Assembly: GCF_013410105.1 (NCBI RefSeq) | Contig: NZ_JACCCJ010000001.1 | Location: forward strand, 434,001 to 498,000 | DNA length: 64,000 nt | Direction: 5' to 3' | Source of the DNA: Sphingopyxis sp. JAI108 | GTDB lineage: Bacteria > Pseudomonadota > Alphaproteobacteria > Sphingomonadales > Sphingomonadaceae | Shown here: positions 36,947 to 45,845 of the stretch, in pieces | Layout of the letters: every line of letters starts with the position of its first letter | Numbering within the stretch: position 1 is the first letter of the stretch | Translations under genes and position numbers: made by a program | The notes under the pieces: model-generated | Told to the model about the DNA's origin: nothing | Database searches by the model: none | The model's input: the letters and a program-made list of their open reading frames with translations, nothing else

Positions 36947-38620
36947 CTAGATCGCGCCCGCCTCGAGCTGCTTCACGGCGTAATCGGCGGCGCGCGCGGT
37001 CAGCGCCATGAAGGTGAGCGACGGGTTTACGCACGAGATCGAGGCCATCTGCGCGCCGTCGGTGACGAACAGATTGGCGGCATCATGCGCCTGGCCCCAT
37101 TTGTTGAGGACCGACCGGCGCGGGTCGGCCGCCATGCGCGCGCCGCCCATTTCATGGATGGCGTCGCCGGGCACATGCTCGCTGCGTCCGCTGGTGACGT
37201 TGGTGAGGCCGGCCCGGCGCAGCATCGCCTCGCCTTCGCTGCGCGCGTCGTCCATCATGCGGATCTCATTCTCGCGGAAGGTGACGTCGAAGCGCATCAG
37301 CGGGATGCCGAAGCGATCGACCTTGTCGGCGTGCAGGCTGACGCGATTATCCTCGTAGGGCAGGCATTCGCCGAACGCGCCCATGCCGAATTTCCAGGGG
37401 CCATAACCGCGCATGCCGTGCTTCATCGACGCGCCGAAGCCCTTGGGCGGCAACGGATCGCGCCGCGCGCTGCCCTGATAGCCATAGCCGCGCTTGAAGC
37501 CGATCCCTTCCTCGCCGCCGACGTTGCGGAAGCGCGGGACATAGACGCCGCCGGGGCGGCGGCCATATTCGATATAATCGGTCATGCCCGGAATGTCGCC
37601 CGAGATGCCGACGCGAAAGATATGGTCCATCACATAGCGGCCCAAAGTCCCGCTCGCGTCGAAATGGCTCTTGGCCGTTCCCGGAATGCGCGAGTTCATC
37701 AAGATCTGGGTCGAAGCCATCGCCGAGGCGCAGAGGAAGACGAGGCGCGCCGGTATCACTTCCGCCTGCCTGGTCTTCGCATCGACCACGCGCACCCCGG
37801 TGACTTTCTTCGTCTTCGGATCATATTCGAGGTTGGAGACGACGGCGTCGGAGCGCAGCGTCAGCCGCCCGGTCGCGCGCGCTGCGGGCAGGGTGACCGC
37901 CTGCGTCGAGAAATAGGCGCCGAAGGAGCAGCCGCGCCCGCACTGGTTGCGGAACTGGCATTTGCTGCGCCCCTGGTCCTCCTTGTCCTCGGTCATGTTC
38001 GACAGGCGGGTGTTGATCAGCTTGCGCCCCGGCGACGTCGCCTCGAGCCGTTCCTTCACCCATTTTTCGGCGACGTTCATCTGGATCGGCGGTTGAAAGG
38101 CGCTGTCGGGTAGCTGCGGCAGATTTTCGCGCGATCCCGACACGCCGATATAATTTTCGACATAATCGTACCAGGGCGCGAGGTCGTCATAGCGGATCGG
38201 CCAGTCGATCCCGACATCCTCGCGCTTGTTCGCCTCGAAATCCTCAGGGCTCCAGCGGAAGCTCCAGCGCCCCCAGATCAGCGACTTGCCGCCGACCGCG
38301 CCGGGCCGGATCCAGTAGAATTTCTCGCCCTCGCCATAGGCATAGGGATTGACCCGGTCGTTGTTGTAGAATTTCCGGTTCGACGGAGAGACATAGCCAT
38401 GCTTGGCGATAAAATAGTCGCTGTCCATCAGCGCCTTGGGCATCATGTCGCGCGCCGGGACCTCATAGGCCGGCTTACCGTCATAATCATAATCGCCATG
38501 CTCGACCATCACCCCGCGGTCGAGCATCAGCACCTTCAGGCCCTTCTCGGTCAATTCCTTCGCGGCCCATCCGCCGCTCACTCCGGAACCGATGACGATT
38601 GCATCGAACTGGTCGGTCAT
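36947..38620 (-). CDS. GMC-family flavoprotein dehydrogenase, probable glucoside 3-dehydrogenase large subunit
   Basis: A 557-residue FAD oxidoreductase of the GMC superfamily. It has the dinucleotide site AIVIGSGVSGGWAAKELTEK, GGKSLIWGRWSFRW in the FAD-covering region, a cysteine-containing stretch CQFRNQCGRGCSFGAYFS, and the C-terminal active-site segment IHEMGGARMA followed by CVNPSLTFMAL. There is no signal peptide. In this branch the flavoprotein travels to the periplasm with a Tat-signal small subunit and passes electrons to a cytochrome c; both partners are encoded in the same operon. The expected reaction is oxidation of a glycoside at C3 to a 3-keto sugar. Specificity (glucoside, lactose, trehalose or other) is not readable. 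Confidence 0.85.
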   Translation of the reverse strand: MTDQFDAIVIGSGVSGGWAAKELTEKGLKVLMLDRGVMVEHGDYDYDGKPAYEVPARDMMPKALMDSDYFIAKHGYVSPSNRKFYNNDRVNPYAYGEGEKFYWIRPGAVGGKSLIWGRWSFRWSPEDFEANKREDVGIDWPIRYDDLAPWYDYVENYIGVSGSRENLPQLPDSAFQPPIQMNVAEKWVKERLEATSPGRKLINTRLSNMTEDKEDQGRSKCQFRNQCGRGCSFGAYFSTQAVTLPAARATGRLTLRSDAVVSNLEYDPKTKKVTGVRVVDAKTRQAEVIPARLVFLCASAMASTQILMNSRIPGTAKSHFDASGTLGRYVMDHIFRVGISGDIPGMTDYIEYGRRPGGVYVPRFRNVGGEEGIGFKRGYGYQGSARRDPLPPKGFGASMKHGMRGYGPWKFGMGAFGECLPYEDNRVSLHADKVDRFGIPLMRFDVTFRENEIRMMDDARSEGEAMLRRAGLTNVTSGRSEHVPGDAIHEMGGARMAADPRRSVLNKWGQAHDAANLFVTDGAQMASISCVNPSLTFMALTARAADYAVKQLEAGAI

Positions 38621-38640
38621 ATCTTATCCTCGAATATCGG

Positions 38641-39480
38641 TTATGCGCGGAGGCGGCTGAGCGTGGTGAAGCTGGTCCGGATGTCGGGCAGATAGGGCGC
38701 CGGCGACTGATCATTCTCGACATAGAAATGCCGGACGCCGGCGACGGCATTGAGCGTGAAGATGTCGGCGAAATCGATCACGCCCTTGCCCACGCTGGTC
38801 ATCTTGCCGTCGATGGTGCGATCCTTGACGTGATAGGCGTAGATGCGGCCGGGCAGACGCCGGATGATCGCCTTCGGATCCTCGCCCGCGGCGATGGCCC
38901 AGAACAGGTCGAGCTCGAGCCCGACGAGCGCCGGGTCGGCATCGGCGATCAGCGTGTCGAACAGGCTGACGCCGTCCGGCTTCACGGTGAACTCGAAATC
39001 ATGATTGTGATAGGCGAAGCCCAGCCCGACCTTCTTGAGCCGCTCGGCATAGCGGTTGAAATCGGCGACGGCGGCCTTCCAGCCCTCTGCATTGCGGTGC
39101 GTGTCGGCCATATAAGGGACGATCAGCGTGTCGGCGCCCAACGCCTTGGTCATCGCGACCGCGCCGTCGAAATCGCTCGCGAGCGCTTCATACCCGACAT
39201 GGATCGAGGGCGAGGTCAGCCCAAGCCGGTCCATCGTCTTGCGGAGCGCGGCATGGTCCATCTTGTCGTAACCGCCGCCGCCATATTCCACCTCGCGATA
39301 ACCGATAGCCGCCACTTTCTCGAGCGTCCCCATCGGGTCGTTCGCGAAGAGTTCGCGCACCGTATAGAGCTGGATGCCGATGGGTTTTGCCTTGAGGCCC
39401 TTCGCCATCAGCGGTCCCGCTGCGAACGTCGTTGCCAAGGCCGCGCCGCCCGCCATCCATTGCCGCCTGCCGATCATCAT
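38641..39480 (-). CDS. Exported TIM-barrel sugar isomerase/epimerase-like protein
   Basis: A 279-residue xylose-isomerase-like TIM-barrel protein. It starts with a twin-arginine leader (GRRQWMAGGAALATTFAAGP) and an AMAK-type cleavage region, so it should be periplasmic. Possible metal ligands are in GFAYHNHDFEF, GLELDLFW, IYAYHVKDRTIDGK and HFYVENDQSP. Related proteins act on 3-keto sugars by epimerisation, hydration or beta-elimination of the glycosidic bond. It overlaps the small-subunit gene by 4 nt (ATGA) and lies 20 nt before the GMC gene. Confidence 0.85.
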   Translation of the reverse strand: MMIGRRQWMAGGAALATTFAAGPLMAKGLKAKPIGIQLYTVRELFANDPMGTLEKVAAIGYREVEYGGGGYDKMDHAALRKTMDRLGLTSPSIHVGYEALASDFDGAVAMTKALGADTLIVPYMADTHRNAEGWKAAVADFNRYAERLKKVGLGFAYHNHDFEFTVKPDGVSLFDTLIADADPALVGLELDLFWAIAAGEDPKAIIRRLPGRIYAYHVKDRTIDGKMTSVGKGVIDFADIFTLNAVAGVRHFYVENDQSPAPYLPDIRTSFTTLSRLRA

Positions 39481-40037
39481 GACGAAAACACCTTCTTGAT
39501 CTCGGAATAGGGATAGGCACCGTCGTAGCGCCCGGGGACGGGCAGATATTCACGCTCCTGCGTGATGCCGACCTCCGACGTGAAATAGCCGGTGAGCACG
39601 AGCTGGCGGAACTTGTCGAAAAAGTCGGCGCCGCCGGCGATCTTGTCTTCCATCGCCAGCGTAAGCAGCGCGTCCTGCTGCGCCGGCATCGCCTTGTCGG
39701 CCGCGACCTTGTATTCGGTGCGGCTCTGCACCTCGATCGCGTCGAGCCCGGCGAGGATCGGTTTGCGCTCGTCGGGGCTGGCCCAGTCGGCGAGCAGCTT
39801 TTCGATAAATTCGGGAACGCCGGCCGCGATCGCGCCGGGCGTGTCGGTGGTCGGCATCACCCGCTCGCTGAGCGCGGTCATCAGTGCGCGCTGCTGTGCG
39901 CTGAACACGGGCGACGAGGGCGGACCGCTACTGATCGGCGTCACCTGCACGGCGGCCGCGCGCGCGATCGGTGCGAACAGGCTGGCGCCGAACATCGCGA
40001 CCATGCCGGCGAGCGCGTCTCTGCGATCGATGATCAT
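39477..40037 (-). CDS. Gluconate 2-dehydrogenase subunit 3-like small subunit (Tat signal)
   Basis: A 186-residue small subunit of a GMC dehydrogenase complex. The N terminus carries a twin-arginine-type leader (DRRDALAGMVAMFGASLFAPIA then RAAA). The mature part has family features: SAQQRALMTALSERVMPTTDTPGA, EFIEKLLADW and FRQLVLTGYFTSEVGITQ. In glucoside 3-dehydrogenases and gluconate dehydrogenases this subunit carries the flavoprotein across the inner membrane and completes the complex. It overlaps its neighbours by 4 nt on both sides, arguing for stoichiometric coupled translation. Confidence 0.88.
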   Translation of the reverse strand: MIIDRRDALAGMVAMFGASLFAPIARAAAVQVTPISSGPPSSPVFSAQQRALMTALSERVMPTTDTPGAIAAGVPEFIEKLLADWASPDERKPILAGLDAIEVQSRTEYKVAADKAMPAQQDALLTLAMEDKIAGGADFFDKFRQLVLTGYFTSEVGITQEREYLPVPGRYDGAYPYSEIKKVFSS

Positions 40038-40876
40038 TTCACCTCGCCTTCGAAGTCATAGCTCGCCGCGGCTTCGGGAAGCGGGCGCACCCAGATGTTG
40101 CGGAAAGAGACCGGGGAATGATGGTCCTGGAGCTGGATCGGCGCGGCGTTGCCGTGCGCCTCATATTCGGCAACCTTGCGCCAGACCGTGCTGCCGAGCC
40201 ACGGCTGGCGGTTCTGCACGAGCACGCCGTTGAGGAAGGCGGTGACATAGGCCGGGCGCAGCAATTTGCCGTCGGGCCCGAAGCGCGGGCGCTCGAAGAC
40301 GATGTCATAGCTCTGCCACTCACCCGGCGGCCGCGAGGGGTTCACCAGTGGCGGCTTCCACGCATAGATCGCGCCGACGGTGCCGTCGGCGTAGGTCGGG
40401 TTCTGGTATCCGTCGAGGATCTGGAGTTCGTAGCGCTGCATGAACCAGATGCCGCTGTTGCCGCGATCCTGCGATGTCTTGGCGGGCGGATTGGGTGAGG
40501 CGAATTCGAGGTGGAGCTGGACGTCGCCAAAGCTTTGCTTGCTGACCAGCGCATTCTCGCCGCCGCCGTCGGCGCGCGGCACCGACGTCGCCGCGCCGTT
40601 CCTGACGATCCACGGCGTCGCCTGCGCCTGCCACGCATCGAGCGATTGGCCGTCGAACAATATGATGGCGTCCGAGGGCGGGGCGCCCGGAACATCGCCC
40701 GGCGTCACCACCGTCGGATGCGGACGGTCGGAATCGTGCACGCGCCATTCCCCGCCGGGCAGCATCGGCGTGTCCTTGAACCCCGGCTTCTCCTGCGCGG
40801 TGGCGGGATTGCCCGCCGCCACGGCGGCCGCGATGGCCGCGCCCCATGCGAAACGCTTCACTTGCTTCTCCCTCAT
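40034..40876 (-). CDS. Exported DUF1080 protein, probable 3-keto-glycoside hydrolase
   Basis: A 280-residue secreted protein with a jelly-roll DUF1080 domain (3-keto-disaccharide hydrolase family). A Sec-type signal covers about residues 1-28 (FAWGAAIAAAVAAGNPATAQ). Domain motifs are IILFDGQSLDAWQ, FGDVQLHLEFASP, RGNSGIWFMQRYELQILDGY, EWQSYDIVFERPRF, VTAFLNGVLVQNRQ and PIQLQDHHSPVSFRNIWVRPL. DUF1080 enzymes are known or proposed to cleave glycosides already oxidised at C3. Placed between the dehydrogenase subunit and another isomerase gene with ATGA overlaps on both sides, it fits that role closely. Confidence 0.87.
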   Translation of the reverse strand: MREKQVKRFAWGAAIAAAVAAGNPATAQEKPGFKDTPMLPGGEWRVHDSDRPHPTVVTPGDVPGAPPSDAIILFDGQSLDAWQAQATPWIVRNGAATSVPRADGGGENALVSKQSFGDVQLHLEFASPNPPAKTSQDRGNSGIWFMQRYELQILDGYQNPTYADGTVGAIYAWKPPLVNPSRPPGEWQSYDIVFERPRFGPDGKLLRPAYVTAFLNGVLVQNRQPWLGSTVWRKVAEYEAHGNAAPIQLQDHHSPVSFRNIWVRPLPEAAASYDFEGEVK

Positions 40877-41784
40877 GCCGCGTCGATCGCGCGATAGGCG
40901 GCGATCAGCCGCTCTTCGCCCGCGCGACCTTCGACCGAATTGCCATGTTCCATGCCGATCACGCCCGCGAAATTCTTCGCGCGGAGCCAGCGGACGATAT
41001 TGCGATAATTGATCTCGCCGCTTCCGGGCTCGTTGCGCCCCGGATTGTCGCCAAACTGGATATAGCCGATCTCGTCCCAGCAGGTGTCGAGCGTGTTGAT
41101 CAGATTCCCGGCCTGGATCTGCTCGTGATAGAGGTCCGCGAGTATCTTGATCGCCGGGCTGTCGACGGCGCGTGCGACGGCATAGCCCTGCGGCACCGTC
41201 GACATGAAGACGCCGGGATGATTCACCAGCGTATTGAGCGGCTCCATCACCATGACAAGGCCATGCGGTTCATAGATTTCGGCCGCGCGGCGCAGCACGT
41301 CGATCACGCGCGCGGTCTGGATGTCGACCGGCAGCTTGCGGTCCATGAAGCCGGTGACGATCGTCATATGCCGGGCATTCAGCCGCTTTGCGACATCGAC
41401 CGAAGCCCGGATATCGGCGAGGAAGCGTGTGCGGTCGCCATCGTCGTTGCCGCCCAATAGCGGTCGGAAATCGCCCCAACGCGGCATGCTGGCGACGAAC
41501 ACGCCCATCGTCATGCCACGCTGATCGAGCGCGCGCGCCATCGCACTCTGGTCGGCGATGGAACGCGTGGCGGCTTCATTATCTTCCCACGCGGTGAAGC
41601 CCTGATCGGCAGCAAAAGCGATCTGTTCGAGGCGGTTGCCCCTGCTCTTGAAGCTGCCTTCGTGCGGGGCGTATTTCAGCGAAAATCGGGACGCACCGGA
41701 TGACGTCGCGCCGTTCGCGGCCGTCGCGGCGCCGACCGCCGCGACGGCCGCGCCCGCGAGCACGGTCCGGCGCGACAGGTTCAT
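40873..41784 (-). CDS. Exported TIM-barrel isomerase, hydroxypyruvate-isomerase-like
   Basis: A 303-residue xylose-isomerase-like TIM barrel with a twin-arginine leader (SRRTVLAGAAVAAVGAATAA). Metal-site candidates are Glu in VMVMEPLNTLVNHPG, Asp/His in ILADLYHEQIQAGNL, the region IGYIQFGDNPGRNEPG and Glu in VIGMEHGNS, the pattern of the hydroxypyruvate isomerase subgroup. Real hydroxypyruvate isomerases are cytosolic, so the leader and operon point to a periplasmic sugar substrate. The frame is open further upstream inside the transporter gene; the ATG at 41784 overlaps that gene's stop by 4 nt. Confidence 0.85.
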   Translation of the reverse strand: MNLSRRTVLAGAAVAAVGAATAANGATSSGASRFSLKYAPHEGSFKSRGNRLEQIAFAADQGFTAWEDNEAATRSIADQSAMARALDQRGMTMGVFVASMPRWGDFRPLLGGNDDGDRTRFLADIRASVDVAKRLNARHMTIVTGFMDRKLPVDIQTARVIDVLRRAAEIYEPHGLVMVMEPLNTLVNHPGVFMSTVPQGYAVARAVDSPAIKILADLYHEQIQAGNLINTLDTCWDEIGYIQFGDNPGRNEPGSGEINYRNIVRWLRAKNFAGVIGMEHGNSVEGRAGEERLIAAYRAIDAA

Positions 41785-43079
41785 GCCGCCTCGCCCGCGA
41801 GCGCCGCGCGCGACTTGCCGCGTTCGCGCAGCCAGATGAAGCCGAACACGGCGAGGAGGATGAGCGGAAGGATCGCGAGCCGCTGGAAGGACAGCGACGC
41901 CGCCGCGTCCTCGACCGCCAGCTTGGCGGCACCGGTCAACCGCGCGAAGGCCTCGGGACCTCCGGCGAACTCGACCTTCGCCCGGTCGAACATCGCGCCG
42001 AGTTGCGGCAGCACGAAGAAGCTGGCGAGCGCGCCCGCCGATCCGACGAGCCCCATCGCCCACGAACCGCCGCGCGGATAGCGTTCGGCGACCGAGGCGA
42101 GCATCGTCGGCCACATCACGCAGACGCCGAGGCCCCAGACGGTCGAGGCGAGGATCGCCGCGACCGGTGACTGCGCCTGGCTCAGCATGAACAGGCCGAT
42201 CGCCGCGAGCAGGCTCGACACCCAGAGCAGCCCCGGATTCGAGATTTTATTGGCGAGGCGCCCCGCGAAATGGCGGAAGACGAACATCAGCGCGTTGACA
42301 TAGACGAGCAGGAGGATGCCGCGCATGCCGACGCGGTTCGACAGGGCGACGTCGATCCACTGCCCCGGCGCCAGCTCGGATGCCGCGGTCAGGAACATTG
42401 CGCCGAACCAGATAAAGAAGCTCGGGCGGCGAAACACCTCGCCCATCATCTCGCCGAAGCTGACGCCGCTTTGCTCACGCAGCGGCGGCGGGAAGGTCGT
42501 CGTCGCGGCGATGATCACGGTCACGGCGGCGGGGATCATCACCAGCGCCATGATCCCCTGCCACGGCAGCGCCGCCGACAGGAAGAAGCCGGCGAGGCCG
42601 CCGACGATGATGCCACCGGGAAACCAGGCATGCAGCACGTTGAGCCGGTGGGTCGTATCGTCGGGATAGAGCTGCGCGGTCAACGGATTGATCGCGGCCT
42701 CGGTCAACCCCCAGCCGATACCGCTGAGCAGCATGCCCGTCCATACGAGCCAGTAGATCGTCATGCCGGTCGCGACATGGCCCGCGGTGACGATCATCAA
42801 AGGGCCGAGGATGAAGCATAGCCCGGCGCCGGCGAGACACCGCTTCATCCCGATCTGGTCGAGCAGCGCGCTCGCGACGAACAGCGTGATCGCAAAGCTG
42901 AGGAAGGCGGCGCCGAGCGCGGCGGCGACCAGTTCGCCGGCCTGTAGCGGCGCGATCGGGTCGATCCATTCGGTCTTGAGCCCGCTGGCGATCGCGCCGC
43001 GGATCGCGAGGCTCGCCGCGGCGGTGAACAGCGCGAGCACGCCCAGCCAGAACAATCGTCCCTTGTGCAATGTCGTCAT
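41781..43079 (-). CDS. MFS sugar transporter
   Basis: A 432-residue, 12-helix major facilitator. It begins with the helix LFWLGVLALFTAAASLAIRG and contains LLDQIGMKRCLAGAGLCF (motif A region), GWGLTEAAINPLTAQLYPD and HAWFPGGIIVGGL, which recall the FucP-like sugar/proton symporters, where a NP and an HAxFG-type motif are conserved. It has no binding partner gene. In this operon it probably brings the released or oxidised sugar into the cytosol. It lies 43 nt after the upstream isomerase gene and overlaps the next by 4 nt. Confidence 0.88.
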   Translation of the reverse strand: MTTLHKGRLFWLGVLALFTAAASLAIRGAIASGLKTEWIDPIAPLQAGELVAAALGAAFLSFAITLFVASALLDQIGMKRCLAGAGLCFILGPLMIVTAGHVATGMTIYWLVWTGMLLSGIGWGLTEAAINPLTAQLYPDDTTHRLNVLHAWFPGGIIVGGLAGFFLSAALPWQGIMALVMIPAAVTVIIAATTTFPPPLREQSGVSFGEMMGEVFRRPSFFIWFGAMFLTAASELAPGQWIDVALSNRVGMRGILLLVYVNALMFVFRHFAGRLANKISNPGLLWVSSLLAAIGLFMLSQAQSPVAAILASTVWGLGVCVMWPTMLASVAERYPRGGSWAMGLVGSAGALASFFVLPQLGAMFDRAKVEFAGGPEAFARLTGAAKLAVEDAAASLSFQRLAILPLILLAVFGFIWLRERGKSRAALAGEAA

Positions 43080-43122
43080 CCTGCGTCCCCTTTTATTATC
43101 GTTTATTTTTGTTTTTGCTTCG

Positions 43123-44166
43123 TCAGGTGAGCCCCAGCATCGTTCGGTTGAGCGCCGGATCGCTGCCGCCCGCGAAATCGTCGAACGCCTTGTCGGCCTT
43201 GCGGATCATGTGCGCGGCGATGAAGGGCGCGCCTTCGCGCGCGCCGTCTTCGGGATGTTTCAGGCAGCATTCCCATTCGAGCACCGCCCAGCCGGCGTAG
43301 CCGTACTGCGTCAGCTTGGAGAAAATGCCGCCGAAATCGACCTGGCCGTCGCCCAGCGAACGGAAGCGGCCAGGGCGATCGACCCAGTCCTGAAAGCCGC
43401 CATAGACGCCCGAGCGGCCGGTCGGGTTGAGTTCCGCATCCTTGACGTGGAACATGCGGATCCGCTCGTGATAAATGTCGATGAACTGGAGATAATCGAG
43501 CGCCTGCAGCACATAATGGCTGGGATCGTAGAGGATGTTGGCGCGCGGATGATTGTCGACGCCCGCGAGGAAGCGTTCGAAGGTGATGCCGTCGTGCAGA
43601 TCCTCGCCGGGATGGATTTCATAGGCGAGGTCGATGCCCTGATCGTCGAAGGCGTCGAGGATCGGCCGCCAACGCTTCGCGAGTTCGCCGAACGCCTCCT
43701 CGACCAGCCCGGCAGGACGCTGGGGCCAGGGGTAGAGATAGGGCCAAGCAAGCGCGCCCGAAAAGGTCGCATGGGCATCGAGGCCCAGCCGCCGGCTTGC
43801 CTTGGCGGCAAGGCGAAGCTGCTCGACCGCCCATTTCTGCCGCTCGGTGGGTTTGCCCTTTACCGCATCGGGCGCGAAGGCGTCGAATTGGGCGTCATAG
43901 GCGGGGTGCACCGCGACCAGTTGGCCCTGCAGGTGGGTTGACAGCTCGGTGATCTCGACCCCCGCTTCGCGGCAGGTTCCAGCAAGCTCGTCGCAATAAT
44001 CCTGGCTTTCGGCCGCCGTGGCGAGATCGATGCAGCGACTGTCCCAGGTCGGGATCTGGACGCCGACATAGCCCGCGTCCGCCATCCAGCGCGCCGCCGA
44101 GGGCAAGCTGTCGAACGGCGCGGCGTCGCCCATGAACTGCGCGAGGAAAACAGCCGGACCCTTCAT
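43123..44166 (-). CDS. Cytosolic TIM-barrel sugar isomerase/epimerase
   Basis: A 347-residue xylose-isomerase-like protein without signal peptide. Probable metal ligands are all visible: Glu in IDLAYEIHPGEDLHDG, Asp and His in NILYDPSHYVLQALD, His in RMFHVKDAELNPTG, and Glu in WAVLEWECCLKHPEDG. It is longer than the two exported paralogue-like genes in the operon and not closely similar to them by eye. It is likely to act on the imported 3-keto sugar or a related intermediate. It follows the cytochrome c gene by 27 nt. Confidence 0.87.
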   Translation of the reverse strand: MKGPAVFLAQFMGDAAPFDSLPSAARWMADAGYVGVQIPTWDSRCIDLATAAESQDYCDELAGTCREAGVEITELSTHLQGQLVAVHPAYDAQFDAFAPDAVKGKPTERQKWAVEQLRLAAKASRRLGLDAHATFSGALAWPYLYPWPQRPAGLVEEAFGELAKRWRPILDAFDDQGIDLAYEIHPGEDLHDGITFERFLAGVDNHPRANILYDPSHYVLQALDYLQFIDIYHERIRMFHVKDAELNPTGRSGVYGGFQDWVDRPGRFRSLGDGQVDFGGIFSKLTQYGYAGWAVLEWECCLKHPEDGAREGAPFIAAHMIRKADKAFDDFAGGSDPALNRTMLGLT

Positions 44167-44193
44167 GCGATAGCCTTTCGCGTCACGTGCCGG

Positions 44194-44586
44194 TCACTTG
44201 GCGGTTGCGGTCTTGAGATAGGCGATCAACGCCGCGCGGCGCGCCGGATCGGCCACTTTGACGACCATGCGCGTGCCGGGCACCTTCTTGGTCGGCGCGG
44301 CGAGATATTCGTCGAGCGACTTTTCATCCCAGCGAATCTTAGAGGCCTTGAGCGCCGGGCTATAGTTGAACCCGGCGACCGAGCCGGCCTGCCGGCCCAT
44401 CAGGCCATGCAGATTGGGCCCCATCACGCTCTTGCCACCCGCCTCGAGCGTGTGGCAGGCCTTGCACGCGGCGAAAGCCTGCGCGCCCGCCCCTTGGGCC
44501 GGCCCGGCATACGCTATGGGCGATGGCATGATCATTGCGGCAGCCAATATTGCACCCGCCAGTGGCAGGGCGAACAGAAATTTCAT
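44194..44586 (-). CDS. Periplasmic monoheme cytochrome c
   Basis: A 130-residue class I cytochrome c. A signal peptide (residues 1-27, ending AYA) precedes one heme site, C41-K-A-C44-H45, and a GPNLHGLMGRQAG segment; the distal Met ligand is probably in PGTRMVVKV. It resembles mitochondrial-type cytochrome c. GAGAGG before the ATG supports the start. As first gene of the operon that encodes a GMC dehydrogenase and its small subunit, it is the likely electron acceptor, feeding the respiratory chain. Confidence 0.92.
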   Translation of the reverse strand: MKFLFALPLAGAILAAAMIMPSPIAYAGPAQGAGAQAFAACKACHTLEAGGKSVMGPNLHGLMGRQAGSVAGFNYSPALKASKIRWDEKSLDEYLAAPTKKVPGTRMVVKVADPARRAALIAYLKTATAK

Positions 44587-44621
44587 TATCCTCTCCCGTC
44601 TGGAAACAGCCGGTGCGATGA

Positions 44622-44635
44622 TGTAACCGTTTGAA
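44622..44635. promoter_or_regulatory. Possible LacI-type operator in the divergent promoter
   Basis: TGTAACCGTTTGAA lies midway in the 95-nt gap between the cytochrome c and Gfo/Idh genes. It has the central CG and flanking AA/TT of LacI/GalR-family sites, with imperfect symmetry. No LacI gene is in the window, so the site is a weak suggestion. Confidence 0.3.
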
Positions 44636-44681
44636 AGCGAATAAGGCAAACAATTTTACGAATTCTGGCAGAGGGAATGCG

Positions 44682-45845
44682 ATGAACGGTCGGTCGAAAA
44701 TTCGCTATGGCATGGTGGGTGGCGGCGAGGGTGCTTTCATCGGTGCGGTGCACCGTATGGCCGCCGCGCTCGATAGCGAATATGAATTGGTATGCGGTGC
44801 GCTCAGCACCGACGCCGACCGCAACCGGCGGAGCGCCGAAACGCTGGGACTCGATCCGGGCCGCGCCTATGCGACCTTCGACACATTGCTCGCCGCGGAA
44901 GCAAGGTTTCCCTTGGGCGAGCGGATGGAAGCGCTGGCGATCGTCACGCCGAACCATCTCCACGCCCCGATGGCGATCGCCGCGCTCGACGCGGGTTTCC
45001 ACGTCCTGTCCGAAAAGCCGATGGCGCTGGATCTTGCGGAGGCGAAGGCGATCGGCGCGGCCGTCGCGCGCAGCGGCAAGCTCTATGGCCTCGCCTTCAC
45101 CTATAGCGGCTATCCACTGATCGAAGAGGCGCGGGCGCGCGTCGCACGCGGCGATTTCGGTGCGATCCGGCTGGTGCAGGTCGAATATTCGCAAGGCTGG
45201 CTCAGCCGGCCGATCGACGCGGATGGCAACAAGCAGGCCGAATGGCGCACCGATCCGGCGCGCGCGGGCCTCGGCGGCTGCCTCGGCGACATCGGGACGC
45301 ACGCTTTCCAACTCGCCGAGCATGTCTCGGGTCTTGCGGTCGAGTCGCTGAGCGCCGAGCTGACGACGCAGGTTCCGGGTCGCCGCCTCGACGACGATGT
45401 GGCGGCGCTGTTGCGCTTTGAAGGCGGCGCGCGCGGGGTGCTGAAGGCCAGCCAGGTCGCCGCGGGCGACGAAAACGGCTTGCGGCTGCGTATTCATGGC
45501 GAGGAAGGCGGCCTCGAATGGTCGCAAATGGAACCGAACAGCCTGACGTTGCGCTGGCTCGACCGGCCGACCGAGGTGATCCGCGCCGGCGGGCCGGGTC
45601 TCGGTCCCTCGGCAATGGCGCGGCTGCGCATCCCGGCGGGGCACCCCGAGGGCTATATCGAGGCGTTCGCCAACCTCTATCGCAGCTTCGGCCGCACCCT
45701 GCGCGCTGGCGCCGCGACGCCGCCGCCGCGCGGCGCCGCCGACTGGTTTCCCGGAATCGCCGACGGCCTGCGGACGATGGCCTTCGTCGAAGCGGTGGTC
45801 GAGAATGCGTCGGGTGAGGCGAAGTGGACTTCACTCGCCGGCTGA
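44682..45845 (+). CDS. Gfo/Idh/MocA-family oxidoreductase
   Basis: A 387-residue cytosolic NAD(P)-dependent sugar oxidoreductase. The Rossmann site is RYGMVGGGEGAFIGAVHRMA, the EKP motif is in VLSEKPMALDLAEAK, and the catalytic GDIGTHAFQLAEH segment is intact. The family includes enzymes that reduce or oxidise 3-keto sugars. GAGGGA 6 nt upstream supports ATG 44682; a TTG 51 nt earlier is unlikely. It is divergent from the 3-keto-sugar operon with a shared 95-nt promoter region and probably carries out the cytosolic redox step, restoring the free sugar. Confidence 0.9.
   Translation: MNGRSKIRYGMVGGGEGAFIGAVHRMAAALDSEYELVCGALSTDADRNRRSAETLGLDPGRAYATFDTLLAAEARFPLGERMEALAIVTPNHLHAPMAIAALDAGFHVLSEKPMALDLAEAKAIGAAVARSGKLYGLAFTYSGYPLIEEARARVARGDFGAIRLVQVEYSQGWLSRPIDADGNKQAEWRTDPARAGLGGCLGDIGTHAFQLAEHVSGLAVESLSAELTTQVPGRRLDDDVAALLRFEGGARGVLKASQVAAGDENGLRLRIHGEEGGLEWSQMEPNSLTLRWLDRPTEVIRAGGPGLGPSAMARLRIPAGHPEGYIEAFANLYRSFGRTLRAGAATPPPRGAADWFPGIADGLRTMAFVEAVVENASGEAKWTSLAG

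What the first reader, a model, noticed from the sequence alone, without database searches (positions are those of the whole stretch)
36947..45845. Compact 3-keto-sugar pathway locus with periplasmic and cytosolic halves
Nine genes combine a GMC dehydrogenase, its Tat-signal small subunit, a cytochrome c, an exported DUF1080 protein, three TIM-barrel isomerase/epimerases, an MFS transporter and a divergent Gfo/Idh oxidoreductase. Seen: four ATGA overlaps and short gaps across the eight reverse-strand genes, export signals on four partner proteins and none on the cytosolic isomerase or the Gfo/Idh protein. Known: GMC plus subunit 3 plus cytochrome c makes glucoside 3-dehydrogenases, and DUF1080 proteins cleave 3-keto-glycosides. 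Inferred: glycosides are oxidised at C3 and cleaved in the periplasm, imported, then reduced in the cytosol, without a classical glycoside hydrolase. Having three different isomerases in one operon may mean a broad or multi-step substrate set.
Basis: partly seen in the sequence, partly recalled or inferred. Interest (0 to 1): 0.85.

Follow-up and report, generated by a model that had tools for sequence, protein, structure and literature searches.

The report
Sphingomonad 3-keto-glycoside breakdown operon
A nine-gene cluster that most likely breaks sugar-bearing molecules by oxidising the sugar first, splitting it outside the inner membrane without ordinary hydrolysis, and finishing the sugar inside the cell; a clear new example of a recently described bacterial route rather than a new kind of system.

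Summary
Observation confirmed: eight reverse-strand genes with four ATGA overlaps plus a divergent Gfo/Idh gene; five proteins, not four, carry export-type N-termini. The split periplasm/cytosol 3-keto-glycoside reading holds, but the chemistry needs revising: two of the 'three isomerase/epimerases' are probably not isomerases. The cytosolic barrel TIM3 (43123-44166) matches a solved 2-hydroxy-3-keto-glucal hydratase end to end (E 6e-175). The exported barrel TIM1 (38641-39480) keeps the catalytic His and four metal ligands of the A. tumefaciens O-glycoside beta-eliminase; its model best matches 3-keto-beta-glucopyranoside-1,2-lyases. So: oxidise, eliminate, hydrate, reduce, as published for A. 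tumefaciens, with a gene list like the Caulobacter lac cluster. The exported barrel TIM2 (40873-41784) stays unassigned. Every PF01261, PF06439 and PF13618 match in this genome (E <= 0.001) lies here. Leads only: the MFS protein would carry a 3-keto-sugar or 3-keto-glucal inward; a LacI-type site may tie the operon to a beta-glucosidase/TonB cluster elsewhere in the genome. No activity was measured. New member of a known kind.

The parts
36947..38620 (-). GMC dehydrogenase large subunit (glycoside 3-dehydrogenase type), no signal of its own
   Evidence: PF00732/PF05199; residues 5-554 align with fructose dehydrogenase large subunit, Cys221/227/231 with three of its cysteines, His489 with the histidine changed in 8k6j (H1147A) and Asn532 with an asparagine that reads Ala in 8xcn; 48% identical to the GMC of the A. 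pusense stretch L156
38641..39480 (-). TIM1: exported, probable 3-keto-beta-glucoside beta-eliminase (OGE / 1,2-lyase type)
   Evidence: best solved relative by sequence 8bvk, E 9.6e-27 (8BVK is AtOGE); His158, His160, Asp191, His217, Glu255 invariant in 25 sequences and aligned with AtOGE His132, His134, Asp163, His189, Glu233; His94 and Glu189 likewise with His66 and Glu161; model pLDDT 89.5, top four fold matches are 8tcd/8tct/8tcr lyases; RR in the first 15 residues of 23 of 25
39477..40037 (-). SUB3: gluconate 2-dehydrogenase subunit 3-like protein with twin-arginine N-terminus
   Evidence: PF13618; only match in the genome; RR in 10 of 10 relatives
40034..40876 (-). DUF1080 / 3-keto-disaccharide hydrolase family protein with Sec-type N-terminus
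   Evidence: PF06439 E 9.1e-39; only match in the genome; 4qhz E 2.1e-50; profile reaches 8tda, 8rr2, 9fbe; His252 invariant in 22 sequences
40873..41784 (-). TIM2: exported (twin-arginine) hydroxypyruvate-isomerase-like TIM barrel, role unassigned
   Evidence: PF01261; TIGR03234 below cut-off; Glu181, Asp217, Gln243, Glu279 invariant in 11 sequences; fold neighbours 3ngf, YcjR 6wn6, 1k77
41781..43079 (-). MFS transporter, candidate importer of 2-hydroxy-3-keto-glucal or 3-keto-glucose (inference)
   Evidence: PF07690; a relative of 48% identity or more lies within 3 kb of TIM3 in 27 of 115 loci (counted)
43123..44166 (-). TIM3: cytosolic, probable 2-hydroxy-3-keto-glucal hydratase
   Evidence: 8ro4 E 6e-175, residues 1-346 of 347; Gfo/Idh relative within 3 kb in 111 of 115 loci
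44194..44586 (-). cytochrome c with signal sequence, probable electron acceptor
   Evidence: PF00034, one CxxCH
44587..44681 (.). divergent control region with LacI-type operator-like site TGTAACCGTTTGAA at 44622-44635
   Evidence: regulator not proven
44682..45845 (+). Gfo/Idh/MocA oxidoreductase, candidate 3-keto-glucose reductase
   Evidence: PF01408/PF22725; 3v5n E 1.3e-107; 48% identical to the Gfo/Idh protein of the A. pusense stretch L156

Best explanation
A self-contained operon for non-hydrolytic glycoside breakdown. Periplasm: the GMC dehydrogenase, carried out by the twin-arginine signal of its small subunit, oxidises the C3 hydroxyl of a glucoside and passes electrons to the cytochrome c. 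The exported barrel TIM1 (metal plus catalytic His) removes the aglycone by beta-elimination, giving 2-hydroxy-3-keto-glucal; DUF1080 is a second enzyme that cleaves 3-keto-glycosides or hydrates the glucal, perhaps for other linkages; TIM2 handles a side form of the 3-keto-sugar. The MFS protein imports the keto-glucal or 3-keto-glucose. Cytosol: TIM3 hydrates keto-glucal to 3-keto-glucose and the Gfo/Idh enzyme reduces it to glucose. Shown here: gene content, residues, folds, conservation, export-type N-termini. Inferred: every reaction, the flow across the membrane, and cotranscription.
For: TIM3 matches a solved 2-hydroxy-3-keto-glucal hydratase over its whole length. TIM1 has the four metal ligands and the catalytic His given for AtOGE and its model best matches 3-keto-beta-glucopyranoside-1,2-lyases. 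An Agrobacterium pusense stretch (L156) has the order hydratase, Gfo/Idh, OGE-like, GMC, subunit 3, cytochrome c. For A. tumefaciens, the paper shows elimination by AtOGE, and reports preliminary evidence for hydration by AtHYD and then reduction to glucose by the Gfo enzyme (abstract and section 7 read). The OGE-like gene of L156 also begins with a Sec-type signal. [quoted passage not shown] TIM3 is in 24 of 27 family genomes with TIM1 against 12 of 172 without. Every PF01261, PF06439 and PF13618 match of this genome is here.
Against: No activity has been measured for any of these proteins. TIM1 is only 32% identical to the Agrobacterium OGE-like protein, and AtOGE Glu39, a ligand of the other metal position, does not align with a Glu of TIM1 (Glu65 stands in a similar G..xVE motif, by eye). 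AtOGE ranks only 8-9 among fold matches, behind the lyases and three uncharacterised chains. Direction and cargo of the MFS protein are unknown. TIM2 and DUF1080 have no firm role. DUF1080 is missing from 2 of 10 sphingomonad loci, though those genomes hold other PF06439 matches. Only 4 of 35 family loci fetched besides the window carry all nine genes. In B. thetaiotaomicron, deleting BT2157 or BT2158 gave no growth defect on raffinose-family sugars (passage). Cotranscription rests on spacing alone.
Confidence: 0.8

Rival explanations
1. The LacABC/DUF1080 reading (partly compatible with the best one): DUF1080 is the main cleaving enzyme (3-keto-disaccharide hydrolase) in the periplasm, 3-keto-sugar is imported, and the TIM barrels only isomerise or epimerise it before reduction.
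For: Caulobacter fitness data tie a DUF1080 gene and lacABC to lactose use, and BT2157 is cited as a 3-ketotrehalose hydrolase (passages). DUF1080 sits inside the overlapping gene run. A review reports that BT2158 with either BT2156 or BT2157 suffices in vitro to convert glucosinolates (passages).
Against: TIM3 is far closer to a solved hydratase than to any isomerase, and TIM1 has the eliminase site. TIM1 is present in 10 of 10 sphingomonad loci while DUF1080 is missing from 2, though other PF06439 genes could stand in there.
Confidence: 0.3
2. The GMC complex oxidises free or anhydro-sugars, or inositol-like substrates, rather than glycosides, and the barrels act as inosose dehydratase or epimerase-type enzymes.
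For: The IolE model hits TIM1 and TIM3 weakly, and levoglucosan dehydrogenase and inositol 2-dehydrogenase models hit the Gfo/Idh protein. Levoglucosan is degraded by the same kinds of step.
Against: Those hits are far below their curated cut-offs, while the hydratase and lyase matches are stronger and more specific.
Confidence: 0.1
3. The genes are a loose cluster of sugar genes with independent roles rather than one pathway.
For: Only 4 of 35 fetched family loci besides the window hold all nine genes. The locus is patchy: TIM3 at E <= 1e-60 is in 36 of 199 family genomes, and in 1 of the 4 shown from its own genus.
Against: Four overlapping starts; nearly the same set in the ten closest named loci; TIM1 and TIM3 co-occur far above chance (kinship not corrected).
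Confidence: 0.07

Closest known systems
Agrobacterium tumefaciens four-enzyme O-glucoside pathway (GlycDH, AtOGE, AtHYD, Gfo; Bitter 2023, PMC10628242)
   Same: In the A. pusense stretch L156, relatives of the window's TIM3, Gfo/Idh, TIM1, GMC, SUB3 and cytochrome follow one another; TIM1 has the AtOGE catalytic His and four metal ligands.
   Different: The window adds an MFS transporter, DUF1080 and an exported hydroxypyruvate-isomerase-like barrel; its eliminase has a twin-arginine rather than a Sec-type signal. L156 shows no MFS, DUF1080 or TIM2 relative in 20 kb but has a LacI gene and an ABC permease upstream.
Caulobacter crescentus lactose cluster (lacABC, CCNA_01705 DUF1080, transporter, two epimerases, reductase; PMC9007349, passages read)
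   Same: Almost the same list of gene kinds, with periplasmic C3 oxidation and a DUF1080 protein with putative signal.
   Different: Three barrels here against two reported epimerases. The Caulobacter DNA was not fetched, so gene-by-gene orthology was not tested.
3-keto-beta-glucopyranoside-1,2-lyases AL1 (Alistipes) and BT1 (B. thetaiotaomicron), PDB 8tcd, 8tcr, 8tct
   Same: Best fold matches of TIM1.
   Different: There the oxidation is by Gfo/Idh-type enzymes (recalled; the Nature 2024 paper is not held), here by a GMC complex with a cytochrome.
Levoglucosan pathway LgdA-LgdB1-LgdB2-LgdC (PMC7676230, abstract read)
   Same: Oxidation, elimination, hydration, reduction, with PF01261 proteins for elimination and hydration.
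   Different: Oxidation by LgdA of the Gfo/Idh/MocA superfamily rather than a GMC complex.

Membership tests
GMC / subunit 3 / cytochrome c glycoside 3-dehydrogenase (LacABC, GlycDH) | GMC subunit without signal, PF13618 subunit with twin-arginine signal, c-type cytochrome, in one cluster | tested here: met
GMC / subunit 3 / cytochrome c glycoside 3-dehydrogenase (LacABC, GlycDH) | Active-site His and Asn and the three cysteines of the fructose/glucose dehydrogenase branch | tested here: met
   His489, Asn532 and Cys221/227/231 aligned with fructose dehydrogenase; that the pair is catalytic and the cysteines hold a 3Fe-4S cluster is recalled
GMC / subunit 3 / cytochrome c glycoside 3-dehydrogenase (LacABC, GlycDH) | C3 oxidation of glycosides | not testable with these tools
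   needs an enzyme assay
3-keto-beta-glucoside eliminase (AtOGE, AL1/BT1 lyases) | Metal ligands His132, Asp163, His189, Glu233 and catalytic His134 of AtOGE | tested here: met
   all five aligned and invariant in 25 sequences; AtOGE numbering counted by me on the alignment, residues named
3-keto-beta-glucoside eliminase (AtOGE, AL1/BT1 lyases) | Ligands of the alternative metal position His66, Glu39, Glu161 | tested here: inconclusive
   His66 and Glu161 align with His94 and Glu189; Glu39 does not align with a Glu, although Glu65, in a similar motif, is invariant in 25
3-keto-beta-glucoside eliminase (AtOGE, AL1/BT1 lyases) | Fold closest to the lyases rather than to epimerases | tested here: met
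   top four fold matches are lyases; AtOGE ranks 8-9
2-hydroxy-3-keto-glucal hydratase (8ro4) | Full-length close relation to the solved hydratase | tested here: met
   residues 1-346, E 6e-175; no signal-like N-terminus in the window or 10 of 10 relatives
PF06439 3-keto-disaccharide hydrolase | Score over the curated cut-off | tested here: met
   133.9 bits against 26.8
Hydroxypyruvate isomerase (TIGR03234) for TIM2 | Score over the equivalog cut-off | tested here: not met
   123.8 bits against 353.45
YcjR-type 3-keto-glucoside 4-epimerase for TIM2 | Close sequence and fold relation | tested here: inconclusive
   fold rank 3 but 19% identity, model pLDDT 73.6, and 3ngf ranks higher

The most novel reading that the evidence does not exclude
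The MFS protein is a dedicated inner-membrane importer of 2-hydroxy-3-keto-glucal (a reactive enone sugar made by a periplasmic eliminase), coupling elimination outside to hydration inside, and the exported barrel TIM2 is a periplasmic 3-keto-glycoside epimerase or 2-keto/3-keto isomerase that feeds other 3-keto-glycosides into the eliminase. I know of no described transporter for this intermediate; papers using the compound names were sought, and I saw none described in the listings or in the passages that I read (in PMC10628242 the word 'transport' does not occur).
Probability: 0.3. Interest if true: 0.6.

Novelty: new member of a known kind. Interest (0 to 1): 0.4.

Why it matters
It moves two genes that annotation would call 'sugar phosphate isomerase/epimerase' to specific, testable steps of the oxidation-elimination-hydration-reduction route, in a sphingomonad genome where each of these families is found only here, so deletions should not be masked by paralogues. 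It also raises a concrete open point of that route: with the eliminase outside and the hydratase inside, something must carry 2-hydroxy-3-keto-glucal or 3-keto-glucose across the inner membrane, and the MFS gene is the obvious candidate.

Tried and rejected
Rejected: three isomerases (TIM1 and TIM3 fit lyase and hydratase); TIM2 as a true hydroxypyruvate isomerase (score far below cut-off). My own first idea, that a periplasmic eliminase is peculiar to this locus, was dropped when the A. pusense OGE-like gene also showed a Sec-type signal. DUF1080 absence in L009 and L011 looked like proof that DUF1080 is dispensable, but both genomes have other PF06439 matches (5 each), so it proves nothing.

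Weak or failed: the operator pattern with one mismatch gives 10 hits in the genome and 10 with the reversed control, so the motif alone is at chance; only the grouping of the copies nearest to the full palindrome is suggestive. L004 shows no such site although its genome has the LacI relative. The TIM2 model is middling (pLDDT 73.6 from 11 close sequences). A PHROGs scan of two flanking genes told nothing useful. Paper searches with DUF1080 plus lyase terms and with Koshland terms found no paper; one search listed mostly mycotoxin papers. Papers not held: Nature 2024 10.1038/s41586-024-07574-y, PMC2863468, Angewandte 2024 10.1002/anie.202410681; what I say of them is recalled or seen as a citation. 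Of the 20 flank frames scanned gave no Pfam hit and may not be genes.


Full report
What is there. The window lies in a 4.05 Mb genome (G000); the closest named loci by TIM3 are Sphingopyxis L002 and L003 at 96% (which may leave out the nearest genomes). Between a thioredoxin-type and an argJ-type gene (names from my reading of the ORFs) sit eight reverse-strand genes and one divergent gene. Pfam confirms GMC, PF13618, PF06439, three PF01261 barrels, MFS, cytochrome c and Gfo/Idh. I call the barrels TIM1 (38641-39480), TIM2 (40873-41784) and TIM3 (43123-44166). Four 4-base ATGA overlaps join TIM1, SUB3, DUF1080, TIM2 and MFS. Export-type N-termini are on TIM1, TIM2, SUB3 (twin arginine), DUF1080 and cytochrome c (Sec type); each twin-arginine pair recurs in 10 of 10 sphingomonad loci.

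Self-contained. In this genome PF06439 matches once, PF13618 once and PF01261 three times (E <= 0.001), all in this operon. The locus is accessory: TIM3 at E <= 1e-60 is in 36 of 199 family genomes, own genome included, and in 1 of the 4 shown from its own genus. Sphingopyxis italica L003 has it between relatives of the same flanking genes as the window, with about 3 kb more beside the GMC gene.

TIM3. phmmer against solved structures gives 8ro4, named 2-hydroxy-3-keto-glucal hydratase, E 6e-175 over residues 1-346. That 8ro4 is the A. tumefaciens protein AtHYD is my inference. A Gfo/Idh relative lies within 3 kb in 111 of 115 loci (80 named plus 35 family loci, some on short contigs where absence means little; overlap of species between the two sets was not excluded).

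TIM1. The best sequence match is 8bvk, the A. tumefaciens O-glycoside beta-eliminase. Bitter et al. give metal ligands His132, Asp163, His189 and weakly Glu233, catalytic His134, and in the other subunit a shifted metal held by His132, His66, Glu39 and Glu161 (section read). In 25 TIM1 relatives (28-92% identical to the window) the window residues His158, His160, Asp191, His217 and Glu255, aligned with His132, His134, Asp163, His189 and Glu233, are invariant; so are His94 and Glu189, aligned with His66 and Glu161. Glu39 does not align with a Glu; Glu65, also invariant in the 25, stands in a similar motif by eye. The model (pLDDT 89.5) matches best the 3-keto-beta-glucopyranoside-1,2-lyases AL1 and BT1, with AtOGE at ranks 8 and 9. 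RR lies within the first 15 residues of 23 of 25; the two exceptions, L019 and L026, may have misplaced starts.

TIM2. Sequence and fold neighbours are hydroxypyruvate-isomerase-like proteins and YcjR, the E. coli 3-keto-D-glucoside 4-epimerase. The score is far below the hydroxypyruvate isomerase cut-off. Glu181, Asp217, Gln243 and Glu279 are invariant in 11 sequences. It has an export-type N-terminus, so a 3-keto-glycoside epimerase or isomerase in the periplasm is a fair guess and no more. Extra PF01261 members of unclear role also occur in levoglucosan clusters (passages read).

DUF1080. The family covers the Caulobacter protein CCNA_01705, proposed to hydrolyse 3'-ketolactose, and BT2157, cited as a 3-ketotrehalose hydrolase (passages). 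A 2026 paper uses a His275Asn variant of a B. thetaiotaomicron 3-keto-O-glycoside lyase that still eliminates but is deficient in hydration (passages). It may be a PF06439 protein, and the invariant His252 here may be the matching residue, but I could not verify either. A review says BT2158 with either BT2156 or BT2157 converts glucosinolates in vitro (passages), so two alternative cleaving enzymes side by side has a possible parallel; on the other hand BT2157 or BT2158 deletions had no defect on raffinose-family sugars (passage).

GMC complex. The GMC protein aligns with the fructose dehydrogenase large subunit over residues 5-554, with Cys221/227/231, His489 and Asn532 in register. It is 48% identical to the GMC of an A. 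pusense stretch, L156, whose order is hydratase, Gfo/Idh, OGE-like, GMC, subunit 3, cytochrome c. There the OGE-like gene also starts with a Sec-type signal, so a periplasmic eliminase with a cytosolic hydratase is not peculiar to the window.

Association. Of 27 family genomes with TIM1 (E <= 1e-20), 24 also have TIM3; of the 172 without, 12 do (Fisher p 5e-19, kinship ignored, own genome included). The 13 with TIM1 at 57% identity or more, own genome included, all have TIM3. In the 35 family loci besides the window, counts at over 50 bits are Gfo/Idh 35, GMC 29, SUB3 26, TIM1 23, MFS 20, DUF1080 11, cytochrome 11, TIM2 10; all nine in 4 (L103 and L152 are short stretches). In the 70 named loci outside sphingomonads: Gfo/Idh 67, TIM1 22, GMC 15, MFS 15, SUB3 13, DUF1080 8, TIM2 8, cytochrome none. 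An MFS relative lies within 3 kb of TIM3 in 38 of 115 loci, in 27 of them at 48% identity or more (counted); I take this as a hint of a shared task.

Control region (a lead). The 95-base gap between cytochrome c and Gfo/Idh holds TGTAACCGTTTGAA. Relatives L007, L008, L010, L128 and L129 hold the palindrome TTTACCGGTAAA there, and L009 and L011 near copies. Eight loci (L007-L011, L124, L128, L129) carry a LacI gene next to the operon, the other seven 54-60% identical to that of L008. The window group (window, L002-L006, L122, L123) has no LacI gene of that group in the stretches held; TGTAACCG is in 6 of these 8 gaps, TCTAACCG in L005, and none was seen in L004. In the window's genome the three copies with 13 of 14 bases of TGTAACCGGTTACA (my count) lie within 15 kb on C3, one just before a LacI gene, among genes for a GH3 BglX-type beta-glucosidase, a TonB receptor, a putative glucoamylase, a GH1 beta-glucosidase, ABC transporter parts and a GluP-like transporter below its cut-off. 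The window site has 11 of 14. Of 17 relatives tested, a match to that LacI (E <= 1e-50) is in 7 of 7 of the window group and 2 of the other 10; two of the seven contain an in-frame stop. Kinship could explain this, and the pattern as a whole is at chance in the genome (10 hits against 10 control hits). If real, it suggests beta-glucosides as substrates.

Verdict. A well-supported new member of the oxidation-elimination-hydration-reduction pathway, close to the A. tumefaciens and Caulobacter loci. The genes are not new in kind; the carrier for the keto-glucal and the role of the exported TIM2 are the open parts.

Noticed in passing
window 44622-44635; own genome C3 74.5-89 kb (L171): LacI-type operator-like site in the divergent control region; the copies nearest to the full palindrome cluster around a LacI gene with GH3, GH1, TonB receptor and GluP-like genes.
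   Followed up: partly
L007-L011, L124, L128, L129 against window, L002-L006, L122, L123: Apparent regulator swap: loci with a linked LacI mostly have TTTACCGGTAAA-type sites, loci without it mostly TGTAACCG-type sites.
   Followed up: partly
L009 and L011: The operon lacks DUF1080 there, but both genomes hold other PF06439 matches.
   Followed up: partly
L130, L133, L147, L153: TIM1 and GMC orthologues of the window stand without an MFS relative, and in L130, L133 and L147 with a Gfo/Idh relative of only about 50% identity, as if the cytosolic half were exchanged; two frames in the gap of L130 gave no Pfam hit.
   Followed up: partly
G003 and G105 (genomes of L004 and L122): The C3-type LacI match contains one in-frame stop in each.
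   Followed up: no
L003 3992-8310 and 20177-21037: Sphingopyxis italica keeps the locus between relatives of the same flanking genes as the window.
   Followed up: no
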